A stretch of DNA of 64,000 nt from Cytophagales bacterium (GTDB lineage Bacteria; Bacteroidota; Bacteroidia; Cytophagales; Thermoflexibacteraceae): contig JAAFKA010000007.1 in assembly GCA_013299115.1 (NCBI GenBank), forward strand, positions 62,001 through 126,000, written 5' to 3'. Both the position numbers and the translations under genes were made by a program. Positions 26,818 through 34,215 of the stretch are shown here, piece after piece (position 1 is the stretch's first letter; each line of letters starts with the position of its first letter). Below the pieces are notes generated by a model that was given only the letters and a program-made list of their open reading frames with translations, had not been told where the DNA came from and searched no databases.

Positions 26818-28140
26818 ATGCTACCACAAAAAGTTACTTATGCTACCCAAAACTATCAATTTCCTGTAACAGACCGTACAGATATAAGAGAAGTGGTAGA
26901 ACCTGATTTTGATATTTTGGGCAAAGAAGATGAGCTATATGTTGATTTATCCGAAGTTCGGAGTACAGATTATTTGAATGAGATAAAAAATCAAATTAAC
27001 CTCGACGAACAAGATTGTTTAATTAAACCTGTCAAAGTTTATCCTAAAATATTGTTTTCAGGTTATAGAGGGTCGGGCAAAACTTTAGAAGTGCGGCGTT
27101 TGCAAAAAGAACTCAACCATTCCAAAGGCTATATTACTATTTTGGTAGAAACAGAAAGTGAATTGGAAGTTTCTAAATTTAAGCCTGAAGATTTTTTTGT
27201 GTTTTTAGTTGCCAAGTTAGTGAAAAGATTGTTAGAAGACCAAATACCTTTTCATTCTTTGGCTTTGTTAGATTTGCAAAAAGAATGGTTAGGAGAAAAA
27301 GAAGTTGCCGAAGAACTGAATAACACCAACAAAGACATAGCAGAAGTCAGTGCAGGTATTGGCGGAGATTTTTTAGGCTTTTTCAAATTAGGCACAAGTC
27401 TGAAAGGGCTTTTTGCGAGTGAAAGCAAAACCTCTACCACCATTCGCCAAAAAATAGATAGAAATAAACCTGAACTTATCCAACGGTTTAACCTTATTTT
27501 GATGGAAATAAGGGAGAGCCTACGCACCAACCCAAAGGTTGCCAAAGATATTTTGTTTATTTTTGATGGGTCTGAAAAAATTAGATTTGAAACCTACGAA
27601 AACCTCTTTATTAACGAGGCACAACTGATTACGAACATCAATTTGAGTATTATTGTTTCTGTCCCTATTCAAACTTTTTTTAAGGTTAGTCATAGCAATT
27701 CTTTGCAGTTCTATGATTGCAAGCTATTGCCTATGCTTAAACCTACAACTGAAACTTTTTTGAAAATGAGGGAGATTTTAGAACGAAGGGCAATTTGGAC
27801 AGATGTTATTAACCCAGATGCTTTGGAAGCCGTCATTAGGTATTCGGGTGGGTCTATTCGTCAAATGTTCAAAATAATGAGTGTAGCCATTATTGGCACT
27901 CGTGGAAAAATTATGATGGAGTATTTTGAGGAGAAAGTGCTTTATAAGCTCAAAAATCAAATGTATGAAAGCCTGACTTCTGAGCATAAACGAATACTCA
28001 AAAACAAAGAATTTATTGATGAAAATAAAAAACCCAATGTAGCAGACCCCAATATTTGGCAGTTGGTAGATGCCAATATTTTGTTGAAATACAATGGTAC
28101 TATTGACATTAATCCGCTAATAGCCGAATATTTCGAATGA
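26818..28140 (+). CDS. AAA+/STAND-like P-loop ATPase, first gene of ATPase-PPR operon
   Basis: 440 aa. An N-terminal region of 75 residues has no known domain. The Walker A loop GYRGSGKT is at 82-89 and Walker B ILFIFD at 245-250 (with FDGSEKI directly after). A sensor-1-like strand NLSIIVSVPI (about 278-288) and a winged-helix-like region with SGGSIRQMFKIM (about 348-360) give the layout of KAP/STAND or Orc1/Cdc6-like AAA+ switches. A mobile glycine segment (AEVSAGIGGDFLGFFKLGTSLKGLF, about 175-200) and an S/T-rich hinge sit between the Walker motifs. It lacks a transmembrane segment and any fused effector or sensor. The stop codon overlaps the start of the PPR gene (ATGA), so the two proteins are made together, and the second gene probably supplies the adaptor and sensor arm. 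Confidence 0.85.
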   Translation: MLPQKVTYATQNYQFPVTDRTDIREVVEPDFDILGKEDELYVDLSEVRSTDYLNEIKNQINLDEQDCLIKPVKVYPKILFSGYRGSGKTLEVRRLQKELNHSKGYITILVETESELEVSKFKPEDFFVFLVAKLVKRLLEDQIPFHSLALLDLQKEWLGEKEVAEELNNTNKDIAEVSAGIGGDFLGFFKLGTSLKGLFASESKTSTTIRQKIDRNKPELIQRFNLILMEIRESLRTNPKVAKDILFIFDGSEKIRFETYENLFINEAQLITNINLSIIVSVPIQTFFKVSHSNSLQFYDCKLLPMLKPTTETFLKMREILERRAIWTDVINPDALEAVIRYSGGSIRQMFKIMSVAIIGTRGKIMMEYFEEKVLYKLKNQMYESLTSEHKRILKNKEFIDENKKPNVADPNIWQLVDANILLKYNGTIDINPLIAEYFE

Positions 28141-29699
28141 TACAAGCCCAAATAGAGGAACTGCACAATGCTTTTTTAGACCGCAAAAGACCTACGGCGG
28201 GGTGCATAATTTTGGAAGACGACCACGCCCGAAAAAGAGTATTGCGTGAGTTTACAGAGTCTTTGCCTCCCGAAATCACAGTTCATAATGTGTCGGTGAA
28301 TGAGCCTATCAATTCCTTGTACCATTTTTTGCAAACCGAAGGATTGTTGGCTTTTGAAAGTACACCCATCAAAGATTTTGTCAATCTTTTTGATTTGGGA
28401 ATCTACCTTTTTCGTTCTCTGCCCGATGGCACGTACAGCCCTACGCCCTTGCTGGAACAGATAAATATGGAAAGGGAAATGCTGTTTCGCCAACACAACC
28501 TCGTGCTTATTTTTTGGTTTACCCAACCCGAAGCCCAAAAAGTGCAACGCCTTGCCCCTGATTTTTGGGATTGGCTGGCGTATATTTTTTATTTTGAGGA
28601 TACTGACCCCATAGAAAATCCAACTACTTACCAACTTACCGCAAGTATCAGCGAAAGCATAGACAAACAAAACGAATATGCCCAAAGAAAAGCACTGGCA
28701 GAGTTGCTGCAAAAAACCGAAGCAGCAAGCCAAGCATTGCCACAAGTGATTTACTATACTAAACTGATAAACGAAAGTCCTTATTACAGCCTTGCAAAAG
28801 GGTATTTGGAAGAAATGCGTGAAAAAGGCTTGCGACCTACACTAATTACCCTCAATGCTTTGCTCAATAAAACACCTAACTACCCTACGGCATTGCAAGT
28901 GTATCAACAGATTGAAAGATATGGCTACCACGCTGATGTATTTACCTATACGACCCTGATAAGAAAAAGCCCAAACGCAACAGAGTTAAAAAAATGGTAT
29001 GAATTGACAAAAGCTAAAAAACTAAAATTAGACGAAATTTCGTACAATACGATTTTGAATAACAAAGCATTGGATTTGCAAACAGCCTTAGCCCTATTTG
29101 AGGAAATGAAAACCAAAGGCTTGCAACCTAACGAAATTACGTACTCGACGATTTTGAATAACAAACAATTGGATTTGACAAAAGCCTTAGCACTGTTTGA
29201 GGAAATGAAAACCAAAGGCTTGCAACCTAACGAAATTACGTACAATACGATTTTGAATAACAAACAATTGGATTTGACAAAAGCCTTAGCACTATTTGAG
29301 GAAATGAAAACCAAAGGCTTGCAACCTAACGAAATTACGTACAATACGATTTTGAATAACAAACAATTGGATTTGACAAAAGCCTTAGCACTATTTGATG
29401 AAATGAAAACCAAAGGCTTGCAACCTAACGAAATTACGTACAATACGATTTTGAATAACAAAGCACTCACCTTTGCCCAACAAATGCCTTATTATCAGGA
29501 GTTTATCAAAAAATTTCCTTTGCGAAAAGGCAATTTCAAATCCGAAAAAAATTATAATTATTTGTTTGGTGCTTTGTTCAAAAAAATAAAAAACAAAACA
29601 GATTGGGATTTTGTGAAATCAGAAATTTATAGGTTGGGCTTGAAATTGAATGACTATACTAAGAGTTTTTATGATAATTCGGAGAAAATGTTTAGGTAG
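28137..29699 (+). CDS. Pentatricopeptide-repeat (PPR) protein with STAND-associated N-terminal domain
   Basis: 520 aa. Residues 1-165 resemble the small domain found beside STAND ATPases and TPR sensors in bacteria; its landmark is INMEREMLFRQHNLVLIFWF...APDFWDWLAYIFYFED (about 109-154). From about 203 to 450 come eight helix-turn-helix units with PPR consensus features: (I)TYNT(I)L..., ALALFEEM, KGLQPN. The first three are diverged (31-32 residues); units 4-7 (300-431) are nearly identical 33-mers. PPR proteins bind single-stranded RNA and are abundant in plant and trypanosome organelles but rare in bacteria. A C-terminal extension (about 450-520) is basic and unassigned. No signal peptide or membrane segment. 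Its ATG overlaps the ATPase stop. A TPR-like reading is possible, but the repeat phrases are distinctly PPR. Confidence 0.85.
   Translation: MIQAQIEELHNAFLDRKRPTAGCIILEDDHARKRVLREFTESLPPEITVHNVSVNEPINSLYHFLQTEGLLAFESTPIKDFVNLFDLGIYLFRSLPDGTYSPTPLLEQINMEREMLFRQHNLVLIFWFTQPEAQKVQRLAPDFWDWLAYIFYFEDTDPIENPTTYQLTASISESIDKQNEYAQRKALAELLQKTEAASQALPQVIYYTKLINESPYYSLAKGYLEEMREKGLRPTLITLNALLNKTPNYPTALQVYQQIERYGYHADVFTYTTLIRKSPNATELKKWYELTKAKKLKLDEISYNTILNNKALDLQTALALFEEMKTKGLQPNEITYSTILNNKQLDLTKALALFEEMKTKGLQPNEITYNTILNNKQLDLTKALALFEEMKTKGLQPNEITYNTILNNKQLDLTKALALFDEMKTKGLQPNEITYNTILNNKALTFAQQMPYYQEFIKKFPLRKGNFKSEKNYNYLFGALFKKIKNKTDWDFVKSEIYRLGLKLNDYTKSFYDNSEKMFR
29034..29429 (+). repeat. Four 99-bp tandem coding repeats (PPR units 4-7)
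   Basis: Four in-frame 99-bp units, each coding 33 residues, differ from one another by only a few bases. Such identity at DNA level means recent expansion by unequal recombination or slippage, and the copy number may vary between strains. On the opposite strand the same DNA gives a spurious 174-codon open frame. Confidence 0.9.
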
Positions 29700-30124: not shown

Positions 30125-31258
30125 GCAGATTCAACTTTGAAATGCAATTTTATTTTTGGTTAAATTTTGTATTGGACTGTCAAATTTTAGTGTTTTTCTT
30201 GGTTTATTATTCAATTTATTTTGTATCTCAGCAATATTTTCAGTAGCAAAATTGCTAAAATCCGACTTTTTTGGAATATACTGACGTATTAAACCATTTG
30301 TATTTTCACGGTTCGCCGTTGCGATTAAGTCCTCGTTCCCACGAATGATAGGGGTTGGCAAAATAAATTTTTACGCCTATTTCGTTTGTAATTTCTTGAT
30401 GATTTGTAAAGTGGAGTGCCACCCCAGTCTTTGCCATTATCAAAAGTAATAGTTTCACAGGGCATCCCTGTTCTTTTGAAGAAATTTACGACCGCATTTT
30501 CGACATTTTTTGCAGTTTTTCCATCTAATTTCTCAATGTAAGTAAATCGTGATTTTTGTTCAACTAATGTTAGAATTGCTCCCTGATGGTTAGCTCCAAT
30601 TATGGTGTCTCCCTCCCAGTCTCCATATCTTTCCCTTGTCTCAACTATTGCTGGTCTCTCAGCTATCATCACTTTATTTGGTATTATCCCTCTTTTTTCT
30701 TTGGTTAGCAACCTTTTTTTACGATATTTCCTCTTTTGTCTTAAATTTTCATAGAGTTTACCTCCATTTTTCTTATCCTGATAAATATATTGATAAATCC
30801 ACTCATGACTCATTACGGCAATATTTTCTTTTTTCAAAACACCTACAATTTGCTCTGGACTGTATTGTTTTTCAAGTAAGTTTTTAATGTAAATCTCAAT
30901 ATTTTCATTAAATTTGTACTGTTTTTTGTCTTTCCTTCGTTGTAGGGCTAAATTATGAGCAACCTCCGCATCGTACAAAGTATCACTTTTTTTGTTACGT
31001 TTTTTTTCCTTAGAAGCGGAGTGCCGCCCAATCGCACTTTCACTAGTCCCAACTTGTCGAGCTATTTCTTTTTGTGATAAATCTGTTGCAAAAAGTGCAG
31101 CAATTTCATATCTTTGTTTTAAGGTTAAGTCGGTTCTCCGCTGCGATGCCATTGTTTTTATTTTAGTTTTTTATTTTGCAATTCAAAAATAAACATAAAA
31201 TATGACATCACTTAACCTATTTTAATTTTTCCTAAATTTCGTTTCAAACTTGATTCCA
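30125..31258 (-). mobile_element. IS30-family insertion sequence, decayed
   Basis: Right end GCAGATTCAACTTTGAAATG (30125-30144) is partly complementary to the left end at 31240-31257 (about 14 of 17 positions), giving an element of about 1.13 kb, the normal IS30 size. It holds one transposase gene on the minus strand, which is broken. No target duplication could be recognised. A solo 15-nt match to the right end lies at 34221-34235. Confidence 0.7.
30131..31152 (-). pseudogene. IS30-family transposase, broken by two 16-bp insertions
   Basis: The first frame (31152 to 30325) has the IS30 helix-turn-helix N-terminus (LTLKQRYEIAALFATDLSQKEIARQVGTSESAIGRH) and the first catalytic aspartate in YGDWEGDTIIG. 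It then reaches TFDNGKD, the second aspartate, and goes astray. Removing 16 bases at 30411-30426 and another 16 at 30308-30323 restores the family sequence: DNGKDFTNHQEI ... SSWERG-like YHSWERGLNENTNGLIRQYIPKK, including the catalytic glutamate, through to IQNLTKNKIAFQS at 30131. So the gene is full length apart from two small insertions, each of which shifts the frame. As it stands it cannot make active transposase. Confidence 0.85.
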
Positions 31259-31361: not shown

Positions 31362-32111
31362 ATGGCAAATAAATTACACGAGTTACTTGCAGTGGAGCAA
31401 GATCGAAAGCATAAAGCAACCCACGCTATTGGCGAAACAATCAAAGTATTTACTAAGCAAGATGTCCAATTTGACGGCATGATAAAAAGATATATTTCTT
31501 TGGAAGAACACGCCGAGCAGATTCCAGACGAAAGCAAAGAAATGGTTTTTACAGTCAAAGACAAATTGAGCCACGCAATAGAAACTATTATCGCAGGAGT
31601 AGATGCCCACTTATCCAAAGAAGAAACCAATGCCTCCAATACAGCCAAAGCAGAGTTATTGGTAGGGGAAAAAAGTTTTGGTACTTTTTCGGCTACTTCT
31701 TTGTTAGCCTTAGAGATGCACATCTCCAAAGTCAAAGAAATGTATCTAACCATTCCTGTTTTAGATTCTACTCGCAAGTGGACTTTCGACACCCAAAAAG
31801 GCTTTTTTCGCACAGACGAGGAAGTAAAATTTAGAAGTATCAAACGTCCAAAAGTAGTTGTGAAATACGAAGCAACCAAAGAACACCCCGCCCAGACCGA
31901 AATTTTGCAGCTTGATTTTCAAGTTGGTAAATATGAAACTGTTTATACATCAGGCAAAATTACGCCAACGCAGAAAGCCAAATTGCTAAAAAGAATAGAT
32001 GATTTGTTGGAAAGTATCAAAATTGCTCGTTCAAAAGCAAACAATGTAGAGGTAATTAACACCAAAATTGCCAAAAAATTGCTCGATTATATCAACGATT
32101 CGGTGATTTAG
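31362..32111 (+). CDS. Conserved hypothetical protein (DUF7873-like)
   Basis: 249 aa soluble protein, no signal peptide or membrane helix. Pattern resembles a conserved family that I recall from actinobacteria and other phyla (MAKLNQI(I/L)AVE...; here MANKLHELLAVEQDRKHKATHAIGETIK). Shared landmarks are LPVLD-like IPVLDSTRKWTFDTQKGFFRT (about 130-150), TKEHPAQT (about 171-178) and the C-terminal KAKLLKRIDDLLESIKIAREA-like helix. No function is known for the family and the cross-phylum spread suggests horizontal transfer. It follows the IS30 element and is bordered on its right by an inverted pair of palindromic elements. Confidence 0.8.
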   Translation: MANKLHELLAVEQDRKHKATHAIGETIKVFTKQDVQFDGMIKRYISLEEHAEQIPDESKEMVFTVKDKLSHAIETIIAGVDAHLSKEETNASNTAKAELLVGEKSFGTFSATSLLALEMHISKVKEMYLTIPVLDSTRKWTFDTQKGFFRTDEEVKFRSIKRPKVVVKYEATKEHPAQTEILQLDFQVGKYETVYTSGKITPTQKAKLLKRIDDLLESIKIARSKANNVEVINTKIAKKLLDYINDSVI

Positions 32112-32112
32112 T

Positions 32113-32206
32113 TACGCTGGCAATGGTCGAAGACCTTGACAATCGTACTTTTTGGGTACTGACATTTTTTATACGATTGTCAAGGTCTTCGACCATTGCC
32201 AACGTA
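32113..32206. repeat. 35-nt palindromic element, second inverted pair
   Basis: Copy 32113-32147 (with one change, CGCTGG for CGTTGG) and its reverse complement 32172-32206 enclose 24 nt, forming a 35-bp stem like that at 13169. It begins 1 bp after the stop codon of the preceding gene, so it may act as its terminator. Confidence 0.75.
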
Positions 32207-32248
32207 TAAAAGTTGATACCTAAAAAATTACCATAAAAAATAAAAAAC

Positions 32249-32400
32249 TTGTTTACAACCCCTTTTGAGTTGTCTAAACAAGCAAGACAGGAGTAGCCTT
32301 AGTTTTATTGTCAGTTTCAATGCTGCCGATGGTCGGTAGTAACCGACGATTGGTTGTTTATTAGTTTTAGTCTTTTGCTCCTTAGACTCAAGCTAAACAG
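32249..32400 (+). ncRNA. Candidate structured RNA upstream of tRNA 3' half
   Basis: Three strong helices follow one another. First, CTTGTTTA...TAAACAAG with inner CAAC/GTTG. Second, GGTCGG-TAGTAA-CCGACG inside CCGAT/ATTGG. Third, TTAG/CTAA enclosing AGTCT...AGACT. They run straight into the tRNA T-arm at 32437. No reading frame is apparent. This could be the extension of a permuted tRNA-like RNA, an intron fragment, or chance folding of decayed DNA. Confidence 0.3.
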
Positions 32401-32436
32401 TTTTTTTAGGCAATTCAGATAGGTTAATCTTAGTGC

Positions 32437-32461
32437 GTAAGTTCGAATCTTACCACCTGCT
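32437..32461 (+). tRNA. tRNA 3' half (T-arm and acceptor strand), no 5' half upstream
   Basis: GTAAG-TTCGAAT-CTTAC is a perfect T-arm with a canonical TTCGAAT loop, followed by the 7-nt strand CACCTGC and T as discriminator base. I find no matching 5' half before it. The perfectly complementary GCAGGTG occurs downstream at 32629-32635. Confidence 0.45.
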
Positions 32462-32498
32462 CAAAAGTAAAATAATATCAGTTGTGTAGCACCTGTAG

Positions 32499-32595
32499 AA
32501 CGGACTTTAGTCCGTTTCTTGTGAATGAAAAAATTCGATACAAAAAAACAAACTTTTAGCATCGAAAATGTCAAAAAAACGGACTAAAGTCCGTT
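32499..32595. repeat. Inverted pair of AACGGACTTTAGTCCGTT palindromes
   Basis: Copies at 32499-32517 and 32578-32595, themselves palindromic, face each other within the spacer between the two tRNA halves. The same short palindrome occurs at 42579 and 61177. Confidence 0.6.
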
Positions 32596-32628
32596 GTACA
32601 GTAGTAGGTTTCGCAACCTATAAACTAG

Positions 32629-32680
32629 GCAGGTGTAGCTCAGTGGCAGAGCAAGAGAATGATTTTATTCCTGTTTGGAG
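32629..32680 (+). tRNA. tRNA 5' half (acceptor strand and D-arm), no 3' half downstream
   Basis: GCAGGTG, TA, then the D-arm GCTC-AGTGGCA-GAGC and A53 are canonical. The following anticodon-stem region (AGAGAATGATTTTATTCC) does not form a 5-bp stem with a 7-nt loop, and no T-arm follows. The acceptor strand pairs perfectly, seven of seven, with CACCTGC at 32454-32460, which lies upstream. Confidence 0.45.
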
Positions 32681-32735
32681 GGCTGAAAAAAAGCAAAAGA
32701 GCAGTAGGTTTTGTAACAAAAACTGAACTGTATTT

Positions 32736-32806
32736 TGGTATGTAATGTAATGGTAACATGATGTGCTCATAATGCGTCAATGCAGGTTCGATTCCTGCCA
32801 TCCTAT
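32736..32806 (+). tRNA. tRNA-Met(CAT)-like sequence, degenerate
   Basis: Cloverleaf by eye: acceptor TGGTATG/CATCCTA with one T-C mismatch and one wobble, TA, D-arm ATGT-AATGGTA-ACAT. The anticodon stem ATGTG/TGCGT is mostly G-T wobbles, with loop CTCATAA (anticodon CAT). The T-arm GCAGG-TTCGATT-CCTGC is perfect. CCA is not encoded. Weak acceptor and anticodon stems suggest decay or an unusual tRNA. Confidence 0.45.
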
Positions 32807-32807
32807 C

Positions 32808-32843
32808 GGACGGAAGCCAGGAAAGTGCTTCCGTCCATTTTTG
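32808..32843 (+). terminator. Rho-independent terminator
   Basis: GGACGGAAGC and GCTTCCGTCC form a perfect 10-bp GC-rich stem with a 9-nt loop, followed by ATTTTT. It is the best intrinsic terminator in the window. It directly follows the tRNA-like sequence, which supports transcription of that locus, and ends only 14 nt before the glycosyltransferase ATG, so it may also attenuate that gene. Confidence 0.8.
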
Positions 32844-32856
32844 TAAATCACTTTTT

Positions 32857-34215
32857 ATGAAAATTATTTTAGCAACTTACAATTACTACCCTTATGCGTG
32901 GGGAGGCTCGGAGGTGTATGTGCATGGGTTAGCTAAATTTTTGCAGCAGCAAGGGCAGGAGGTATTAGTTATTGCAGCCATAGATTTGGTGCGCCAACCA
33001 CCAGCCAATCCGTTGTTTACCTATCAAGACGAGCATTTGCAAGTTTGTGAATATGTATATGAGGGTGTAAATGTGTTGGGTGCTATGCTTACTAACGAAA
33101 CCACCGAAGAAGTTTACAGCAGGTATAATACTAGTCATGTAAGTTCTTGGCAACTTATTATGCAAAAACACCATTTTTTTACTTTTTCTGTTGCTGCTTT
33201 TCATTACAACGGTTATACAACCTTGATAAGCACAGCCTTTGTGGAGGCATTGCAAACGGAACAAAAACGTAAAAACTTTGAACCTACTCGTGTATTGGCA
33301 AGTTATCATACGCCTATCAGTTGCCCAAATGGAAAGTTGCTACACTTCAAAAAACAGGCTTGTCGTGTAAAACCTTCACCCCAGCTATGCACTGCTTGTT
33401 TTCTCAATGACAAAAAAAATGTACCCAATTCTTTAGCCTCTGCTGCAGGTCTTTTATTGCCAGCTTTGAAACACAAAAAATTGCATATAGCTTTAAGAGT
33501 CAAGCACTTGATTAAATCAAGTTTGCAATCTTTTCAACAGCTTGATAATCAAGTACATCAATGGTTAGTTATGTCAGATTATATTCGCGAGGTAATTGTT
33601 TTGGCTGGTGTAAATCCAAATAAGGTGGCTTTGTTGCGTCATGGTATTCACGCAGACTTTTTGGGTTTTCAACGACCTCAAACTATTTTAGAAATACAAG
33701 AACAACCCACTATTTTTGTTTATGTTGGCAGATTTGAGTTAATTAAAGGTTTTCATACCCTGCTGCAAACGTGGCAGAGTTTGCCCATAGTACCTGAAAA
33801 AAGACAGTTGCACATCATAGGCAATATGCAAAGTGATATTCCTTTGATAGAAGCATTGCTAATAAAAGTTAAAGAAAGACCAGATGTACTATTTTTAGGA
33901 AAAAAAGACAGCAAAGAAATTCGCACTATTTTGCAAGGTGCTGCGTGCATGATTATTCCTTCGGAGTGGGTAGAAATAGGCCCCTTAGTTTTGCACGAAG
34001 CCATAGCTTGTGGAGCAAATGTGTTAGTTTCTGCTATTGGCGGCACAGCCGAATTAGCCCAGTTTTATGGCAAAGGTTGCCAAACTTTTGAGATGGGCAA
34101 CCAAGAGGATTTGCGAACTAAAATTATAAATTTTCATTATCAATCCATTGCCCATCATGTACAGTCGCAAACCAAACATTATGAACACGTGTTGGCTTTG
34201 TATCATTTGAATTAA
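32857..34215 (+). CDS. Glycosyltransferase family 4 protein
   Basis: 452 aa, GT-B fold. The N-terminal acceptor domain has the GT4 signature YYPYAWGGSEVYVHGLAKFL (about 9-28). The C-terminal donor domain (about 285-440) has IFVYVGRFELIKGFHTLLQTW (about 288-308) and the family's E-x7-E region IPSEWVEIGPLVLHEAIACGANVLVS (about 368-393). Such enzymes transfer sugars from nucleotide donors to lipids, polysaccharide or protein at the cytoplasmic face of the membrane. An internal cluster of cysteines (about 150-190: C-P-N-G-K...C-R...C-T-A-C) is uncommon and might bind metal. The gene stands alone immediately after a strong terminator, so it needs readthrough or a promoter inside the tRNA-like region. 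Confidence 0.9.
   Translation: MKIILATYNYYPYAWGGSEVYVHGLAKFLQQQGQEVLVIAAIDLVRQPPANPLFTYQDEHLQVCEYVYEGVNVLGAMLTNETTEEVYSRYNTSHVSSWQLIMQKHHFFTFSVAAFHYNGYTTLISTAFVEALQTEQKRKNFEPTRVLASYHTPISCPNGKLLHFKKQACRVKPSPQLCTACFLNDKKNVPNSLASAAGLLLPALKHKKLHIALRVKHLIKSSLQSFQQLDNQVHQWLVMSDYIREVIVLAGVNPNKVALLRHGIHADFLGFQRPQTILEIQEQPTIFVYVGRFELIKGFHTLLQTWQSLPIVPEKRQLHIIGNMQSDIPLIEALLIKVKERPDVLFLGKKDSKEIRTILQGAACMIIPSEWVEIGPLVLHEAIACGANVLVSAIGGTAELAQFYGKGCQTFEMGNQEDLRTKIINFHYQSIAHHVQSQTKHYEHVLALYHLN

What the first reader, a model, noticed from the sequence alone, without database searches (positions are those of the whole stretch)
32401..32690. tRNA halves in permuted order
A perfect T-arm with acceptor strand CACCTGC (32437-32460) precedes, by about 170 nt, a canonical acceptor strand GCAGGTG with D-arm (32629-32652). 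The two acceptor strands pair in all seven positions, and an inverted pair of palindromes in the spacer could bring them together. Circularly permuted tRNAs are known in some algae and archaea and permuted tmRNA in some bacteria, but permuted tRNA is not established in bacteria. The anticodon arm is not resolved.
Basis: partly seen in the sequence, partly recalled or inferred. Interest (0 to 1): 0.6.

Follow-up and report, generated by a model that had tools for sequence, protein, structure and literature searches.

The report
tRNA-mimicking RNA with protein partner DUF7873
The two swapped tRNA halves are not a broken or spliced tRNA gene but a conserved tRNA look-alike inside a larger non-coding RNA, which keeps company with one uncharacterised protein (DUF7873) in many bacterial phyla and in phages and looks like an undescribed RNA-protein machine.

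Summary
In detail: T-arm plus acceptor strand (32437-32460) precedes acceptor strand plus D-arm (32629-32652) by 168 nt; the acceptor strands pair 7/7. It is not a decayed tRNA: on 22 aligned copies 439 of 440 base-pair cells are standard and 13 of 20 pairs change on both sides. The topology is the circularly permuted tRNA-like module known from bacterial Y RNAs, here in a larger RNA with AG-rich repeats, a long basal stem and, in Bacteroidota, a complete tRNA-like element at the 3' side. Ro60 is not found in this genome; the partner is DUF7873, the gene just upstream (31362-32111). In 390 genomes of the order: both 28, RNA only 1, DUF7873 only 3, neither 358. Beyond Bacteroidota, permuted modules, often two, follow DUF7873 in other phyla and phages: 27 in 10,450 downstream bases versus 1 in 229,282 elsewhere. 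Rfam has no such family; open-licence papers searched do not describe it. The window copy carries a dispersed hairpin repeat in its cap loop. The RNA and its tie to DUF7873 are well supported; function (Y-RNA-like tether or tRNA decoy) is inference.

The parts
31362..32111 (+). gene of the DUF7873 protein (249 aa), the co-occurring partner
   Evidence: Pfam PF25283, E 7e-76, 255.6 bits against a cut-off of 27; co-occurrence
32293..32314 (+). block 1, AG-rich stretch of period 6 near the presumed 5' end of the RNA
   Evidence: aligns with the same block in 23 other copies (by eye); place
32361..32400 (+). block 2, second AG-rich conserved stretch (TTAG..TCTTTTGCTC..TTAG)
   Evidence: aligned upstream block of the other copies; place
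32391..32424 (+). basal stem, 5' strand (approximate limits)
   Evidence: duplex with about 32669-32703, -26.5 kcal/mol, z -3.8 against shuffles
32428..32431 (+). anticodon-position helix, strand pairing with 32655-32658
   Evidence: 4 of 4 pairs; 100% of cells paired in 22 copies
32437..32453 (+). T-arm
32454..32460 (+). acceptor 3' strand
   Evidence: 7/7 pairs with 32629-32635; all 7 pairs show changes on both sides among copies
32461..32628 (+). cap loop of the acceptor stem (168 nt), holding a dispersed hairpin repeat at about 32480-32604
32629..32635 (+). acceptor 5' strand
32638..32652 (+). D-arm
   Evidence: its 4 pairs never vary in 22 copies, so they say nothing for or against
32655..32658 (+). 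anticodon-position helix, second strand
32669..32703 (+). basal stem, 3' strand (approximate limits)
32736..32807 (+). complete tRNA-like element 'tRNA-Met(cat)' with irregular stems (tRNA2)
   Evidence: a complete tRNA lies 50-93 nt downstream in 43 of 46 copies
32808..32843 (+). hairpin (32808-32836) and T-run, presumed terminator
   Evidence: read; similar hairpins follow tRNA2 in the loci; the terminator scan did not list it (its loop is longer than that scan allows)

Best explanation
The window carries a two-component RNA-protein system: a gene for a DUF7873 protein and, directly downstream, a non-coding RNA of roughly 450-550 nt. The RNA has AG-rich period-6 blocks and a long basal stem crowned by a circularly permuted tRNA-like module (T-arm, acceptor, cap loop, acceptor, D-arm); in Bacteroidota a complete tRNA-like element follows. 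Shown by comparison: the permuted fold is under selection, the RNA and DUF7873 occur together, and the pair is found in many phyla and in phages. Inferred: DUF7873 binds the RNA (perhaps at the repeats or the basal stem); the module mimics tRNA to a tRNA-handling partner, tethering it as Y RNA tethers PNPase to Ro60, or serving as a decoy; the 3' tRNA-like element mainly marks the RNA's 3' end for RNase P. I give about 0.95 to a real conserved RNA, 0.9 to the DUF7873 partnership and 0.4 to the tether-or-decoy mechanism.
For: Same reversed order in 23 places of 17 of 390 genomes, none for the reversed control pattern. 439 of 440 cells paired, 13 of 20 pairs changed on both sides, 0 of 500 shuffles reach any measure. 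Basal-stem duplex z mean -2.3 over 47 copies, 43 below -1. DUF7873 in 19 of 19 RNA genomes and 0 of 9 others; over 390 genomes 28/1/3/358, p 3e-38, and 25/1/6/358, p 1e-32, with strict RNA calls. All 5 divergent DUF7873 paralogs L199, L209-L212 have the RNA directly downstream. In other phyla all 11 model hits at E<=0.05 lie directly downstream of DUF7873. Model-free scan: 27 cores in 10,450 downstream bases (17 of 19 loci) against 1 in 229,282 strand-bases elsewhere; 4 of 5 further loci, none elsewhere. Y RNA precedent for the permuted tRNA fold and for tethering: passages.
Against: No transcript or binding data. In 18 of 31 DUF7873 genomes of the order no RNA copy was found directly after the gene, and 14 of 31 close loci show none. 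A divergent paralog in G001 (L200) has no RNA nearby, nor has the Microcoleus phage locus L267; in G069 (L206) only 310 bases follow the gene. G169 has the RNA without DUF7873 (79% complete genome). No promoter was established for the window. The fold of DUF7873 has no convincing match, so RNA binding is unsupported by structure.
Confidence: 0.8

Rival explanations
1. A genuine permuted tRNA gene: the transcript is circularised or spliced in the anticodon loop, then RNase P and tRNase Z remove the spacer to give a working tRNA.
For: Halves in permuted order with tRNA-like D- and T-arms; N73 is followed by C in 49 of 49 copies, as in the tRNAs of this genome listed; cap loop free to vary, as a removed spacer would be.
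Against: The anticodon-position helix continues into a basal stem in most copies and leaves no anticodon loop; acceptors differ freely between copies without a steady identity; two modules per RNA and a fixed protein partner.
Confidence: 0.05
2. A true Ro60-binding bacterial Y RNA (YrlA).
For: Same permuted tRNA-like module and basal stem; Rfam YrlA matches 7 of 10 relatives' loci at 27.8-38.3 bits, and in other phyla its matches near DUF7873 too; YrlA-type RNAs sit beside Ro60 in all 5 Ro60 loci that I scanned.
Against: No TROVE/Ro60 match in this genome (99.99% complete) nor in 10 of 19 RNA-bearing genomes, three of these under 90% complete; all YrlA scores are below the gathering score of 69 and the window itself has no YrlA match at E<=5; the RNA is far longer and is linked to DUF7873.
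Confidence: 0.08
3. A variant two-piece (permuted) tmRNA.
For: Permuted tRNA-like part; partial sub-threshold matches to Rfam tmRNA_permuted, positions 36-95 of 213, in 4 of 10 relatives' loci.
Against: Ordinary tmRNA above cut-off in 9 of 9 genomes tested; full D-arm; variable acceptors; no steady tag frame seen by eye (not tested formally).
Confidence: 0.03
4. Two decayed tRNA genes, or one tRNA split by a repeat insertion.
For: A dispersed repeat lies between the halves; tandem arrays of true tRNAs give weak look-alike hits.
Against: Compensatory changes in all 7 acceptor pairs, and relatives without the repeat have the same order.
Confidence: 0.01

Closest known systems
Bacterial Y RNA (YrlA, Rfam RF02553) with Ro60/Rsr and PNPase
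   Same: Circularly permuted tRNA-like module on a basal stem formed by its flanks; sub-threshold YrlA matches
   Different: Partner is DUF7873, not Ro60; longer RNA with AG-rich blocks; often two modules, or a complete tRNA-like element; below the family's gathering score
Permuted (two-piece) tmRNA (Rfam RF04321)
   Same: tRNA-like part encoded in permuted order
   Different: Full D-arm, no tag frame recognised, partial sub-threshold matches only, ordinary tmRNA elsewhere in the genome
Circularly permuted tRNA genes of algae and archaea (PMC3978253, passages; PMC3218864, listing)
   Same: 3' half precedes 5' half; the acceptor ends face a spacer
   Different: No anticodon loop on joining; not a decoding tRNA on present evidence; protein partner

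Membership tests
Bacterial Y RNA (YrlA) | Circularly permuted tRNA-like module | tested here: met
   precedent in PMC11472068, passages
Bacterial Y RNA (YrlA) | Stem formed by the flanks of the module | tested here: met
   duplex energies against shuffles; the Ro60-binding site within it was not examined
Bacterial Y RNA (YrlA) | Ro60/Rsr encoded in the genome, usually nearby | tested here: not met
   No TROVE match in G000; 9 of 19 RNA-bearing genomes have one
Bacterial Y RNA (YrlA) | Rfam gathering score | tested here: not met
   Window: no match at E<=5; relatives 27.8-38.3 bits against 69
Bacterial Y RNA (YrlA) | Binding of Ro60 and PNPase | not testable with these tools
   needs biochemistry
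Circularly permuted tRNA gene | 3' half before 5' half with matching acceptor strands | tested here: met
Circularly permuted tRNA gene | Joined halves give an anticodon arm with a normal loop | tested here: not met
   Helix extends into the basal stem
Circularly permuted tRNA gene | Joined mature tRNA | not testable with these tools
   needs RNA sequencing
Permuted tmRNA | Match to the family model and role as the genome's tmRNA | tested here: not met
   partial sub-threshold matches in 4 of 10 relatives' loci; ordinary tmRNA in 9 of 9 genomes
DUF7873 (PF25283), the protein | Pfam model above cut-off | tested here: met
   window 255.6 bits against 27; 7 of 7 phage and plasmid proteins given

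The most novel reading that the evidence does not exclude
An undescribed, widespread RNA-protein machine: DUF7873 plus a large RNA with tRNA mimics (two permuted modules, or one permuted module and one ordinary tRNA-like element), used by bacteria and carried by phages, often inside their tRNA clusters. It would act on tRNA metabolism or translation: holding a tRNA-processing or tRNA-cutting enzyme, acting as decoy in phage-host conflicts over tRNA, or filling two tRNA sites of the ribosome.
Probability: 0.7. Interest if true: 0.92.

Novelty: new variant of a known kind. Interest (0 to 1): 0.85.

Why it matters
Bacterial Y RNAs are the known case of a circularly permuted tRNA mimic, tied to Ro60. 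Here another family of such RNAs has a different partner, the uncharacterised DUF7873. I saw the pair in Bacteroidota, Planctomycetes, Spirochaetes, Verrucomicrobia, Myxococcota and Actinomycetes, and in phages of Gordonia, Arthrobacter, Rhodococcus, Vibrio, Rhizobium and Klebsiella. It gives an orphan protein family an RNA, explains stretches without annotated genes after several of these phage genes, and makes a link between tRNA mimicry and phage biology testable. It also shows how a 'split tRNA' in raw sequence can be a different kind of molecule.

Tried and rejected
Permuted group I or II intron around the halves: considered; Rfam reported no intron in the window at gathering, nor in 32100-32900 at E<=5. 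tmRNA: rejected. Pseudogenes: rejected. Ro60 Y RNA in the strict sense: rejected for this genome. The AG-rich blocks as a coding frame: read by eye only; open in some copies, stopped in others. A fixed block-2 motif across phyla: my regular expression hit downstream in only 7 of 19 loci and 25 times elsewhere, so the block is claimed firmly for Bacteroidota only; in other phyla it is read by eye.

Rows dropped before counts: 68 unique cores became 49 by removing those that overlap complete tRNAs (tandem Phe, Val and Lys arrays) and those at five loci that I judged tRNA fragments by eye (L121, L141, L142, L144, L148). The duplex test also left out L128 and copies with short flanks (47 tested). 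In one search, 139 of 390 genomes had some hit at E<=0.01; I take the partial ones for neighbouring ordinary tRNAs, checked for those fetched. The table uses the 26 genomes with E<=1e-10 plus G001, G034 and G049; the strict table omits these three. G034 and G049 were accepted because their hits adjoin DUF7873, which is partly circular.

DUF7873: AlphaFold2 model of mean pLDDT 88; no PDB or viral match with E<=0.001; VIA best Z 5.5 at rmsd 11.4 over 142 residues, with SRP9/14 and PUR-domain rows at Z 2.2-2.6, not trusted. PDB sequences: one row at E 0.21. NCBIfam: only rows far below cut-off; PHROGs and PADLOC none. Ten mechanical ORFs beside DUF7873 in 7 loci of other phyla: four have Pfam matches, with no family shared between loci.

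Full report
OBSERVATION. ARAGORN and Rfam (gathering) report neither half, only a complete tRNA at 32736-32807. A structure-only scan finds this single permuted core in the window and 2 in 40 shuffled windows. The spacer holds a hairpin repeat with over 20 other long matches in the genome.

RELATIVES. A DNA search of 59 genomes led to loci of other families in which the same T-half then 5'-half order appears with different acceptor sequences. A strict pattern over 390 genomes of the order gave 23 places in 17 genomes, and none for the reversed control pattern. An alignment of 22 copies, window included, pairs in 439 of 440 cells: all 7 acceptor pairs, 4 of 5 T-stem pairs and 2 of 4 anticodon-position pairs have changes on both sides; the D-stem is invariant; none of 500 shuffles reaches any of the five measures; slid versions pair in 31-51% of cells. 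The structure was written from one copy (L078), which favours it over slid versions but does not create compensatory changes. The copies are related, so cells are not independent.

LARGER RNA. Upstream of the module lie two conserved AG-rich blocks of period 6. The flanks of the module pair into a basal stem: duplex energy z averages -2.3 over 47 copies, 43 below -1, 27 below -2; the window has -3.8. Downstream, 43 of 46 copies with enough sequence have a complete tRNA at 50-93 nt, with 15 different anticodon calls, several irregular; in the copies that I read a hairpin and T-run follow. The cap loop is 19-210 nt in these 49 copies; the long caps of the window, L143 (same genus) and L140 hold long hairpins, so the cap tolerates insertions. 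N73 is followed by C in 49 of 49.

WHAT KIND OF MODULE. The order is that of the permuted tRNA-like part of bacterial Y RNAs. PMC11472068 (passages) reports that Y RNA 6CU1 superposes on tRNAs with a circular permutation; PMC8394870 (passages) describes the stem, the tRNA-like domain and the Ro60-PNPase tether. Rfam YrlA matches 7 of 10 relatives' loci at 27.8-38.3 bits, below its gathering score of 69, and not the window at E<=5. YrlA-type matches sit beside Ro60 in all 5 Ro60 loci scanned. But no Ro60 is found in this genome or in 10 of 19 RNA-bearing genomes, three of them under 90% complete. Ordinary tmRNA is present in 9 of 9 genomes tested.

PARTNER. The gene just upstream in the window is DUF7873. 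In 28 genomes that I chose (19 with, 9 without the RNA), DUF7873 is in 19 of 19 and 0 of 9. Over 390 genomes: both 28, RNA only 1 (G169), DUF7873 only 3 (G009, G060, G069), neither 358, p 3e-38; with strict RNA, p 1e-32; neither test corrects for phylogeny. A filter-free search finds the RNA right after the divergent DUF7873 of G009, G060, G034, G049 and the second gene of G064. In 13 of the 31 genomes an RNA copy directly follows a DUF7873 gene; in the rest they are apart or on other contigs. The divergent paralog of G001 (L200) has none nearby.

OTHER PHYLA AND PHAGES. A scan of GTDB species genomes with the DUF7873 alignment gave 43 loci. Of 31 close loci (58-75% identity, nearly all named as Bacteroidota) 17 have a model hit, each just downstream on the same strand. 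Of 12 loci named as Verrucomicrobia, Spirochaetes, Planctomycetes, Deltaproteobacteria, Myxococcota, proteobacterium or Actinomycetes, 11 have one there; of 21 hits at E<=10, 18 lie downstream and 3 elsewhere, and all 11 at E<=0.05 are downstream. Reading shows block 1, a permuted module, a second AG-rich stretch and a second module in many. DUF7873 is also in 4 plasmid-collection records and 73 of 50,697 phage records, in several inside tRNA clusters. A model-free scan found 27 permuted cores in the 10,450 bases downstream of DUF7873, in 17 of 19 loci (two cores in 10 of them), and 1 in 229,282 strand-bases elsewhere, that one 603 nt downstream of a phage DUF7873; of 5 further loci 4 have cores downstream, with none elsewhere. 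Of the loci opened, 8 of 10 from phages and 2 of 2 from the plasmid collection have a core within 550 nt; in L256-L258 the RNA fills gaps of about 410-530 nt without annotated genes.

PROTEIN. The AlphaFold2 model (pLDDT 88, pTM 0.74) has no convincing match. VKYEAT..HPAQ is invariant over the 37 sequences, which lacks the divergent paralogs (one search shows it is not kept there). No shared neighbour gene was found in a small sample, so protein and RNA may be the whole system.

HOW IT WORKS. Shown: conserved permuted tRNA mimicry and co-occurrence with DUF7873. Inferred: DUF7873 binds the RNA; the mimic engages a tRNA-handling protein, as in Y RNPs, or decoys tRNA-directed nucleases, which would suit phage tRNA clusters (PMC7790460, passages, raises a decoy role for YrlA); in Bacteroidota RNase P cleavage at tRNA2 sets the 3' end. 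None of these steps is tested.

LITERATURE. Nine searches (permuted tRNA in bacteria; two-piece tmRNA; YrlA; DUF7873; Y RNA with TROVE; bacterial Y RNA with Ro60; large tRNA-like RNAs; phage Y-type RNAs; phage RNAs in tRNA clusters) showed no account of this RNA or of DUF7873 in titles, abstract starts or the passages read. The library holds open-licence papers only, and three key Y RNA papers were not held, so this is not proof of absence.

Noticed in passing
32113-32206: Almost perfect 35-nt inverted repeat directly after the DUF7873 stop codon (97% complementary, 24-nt loop); terminator or another mobile hairpin.
   Followed up: no
28137-29699: Bacterial protein with five PPR-repeat stretches, PF13041 E 5e-48; in-frame DNA repeats of one unit are seen in its sequence.
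   Followed up: no
30325-31152: Transposase-like ORF with HTH_38 and rve matches just below cut-off, seemingly of the IS30 type (family name recalled) and perhaps truncated.
   Followed up: no
L256 563-1091: Unannotated tmRNA (89 bits, cut-off 47) inside the tRNA cluster of Gordonia phage Phendrix.
   Followed up: no
L261 3507-3590: The record of Klebsiella phage Centimanus lists a 'tRNA-Stop(tta)' that overlaps the T-half of a permuted module; probably a mis-call.
   Followed up: partly
L174 2725-3398, L175 979-1381, L173 2071-3380: Groups of two or more YrlA-like matches beside Ro60 genes in Cytophagales-order genomes, all below the Rfam gathering score.
   Followed up: partly
L053 61-136 and L054 64-139: Second, unusual tRNA-Cys(gca) in two identical copies near contig ends of the window's genome.
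   Followed up: no
L267 2239-2718: Microcoleus phage DUF7873 locus without a recognisable permuted core downstream.
   Followed up: no
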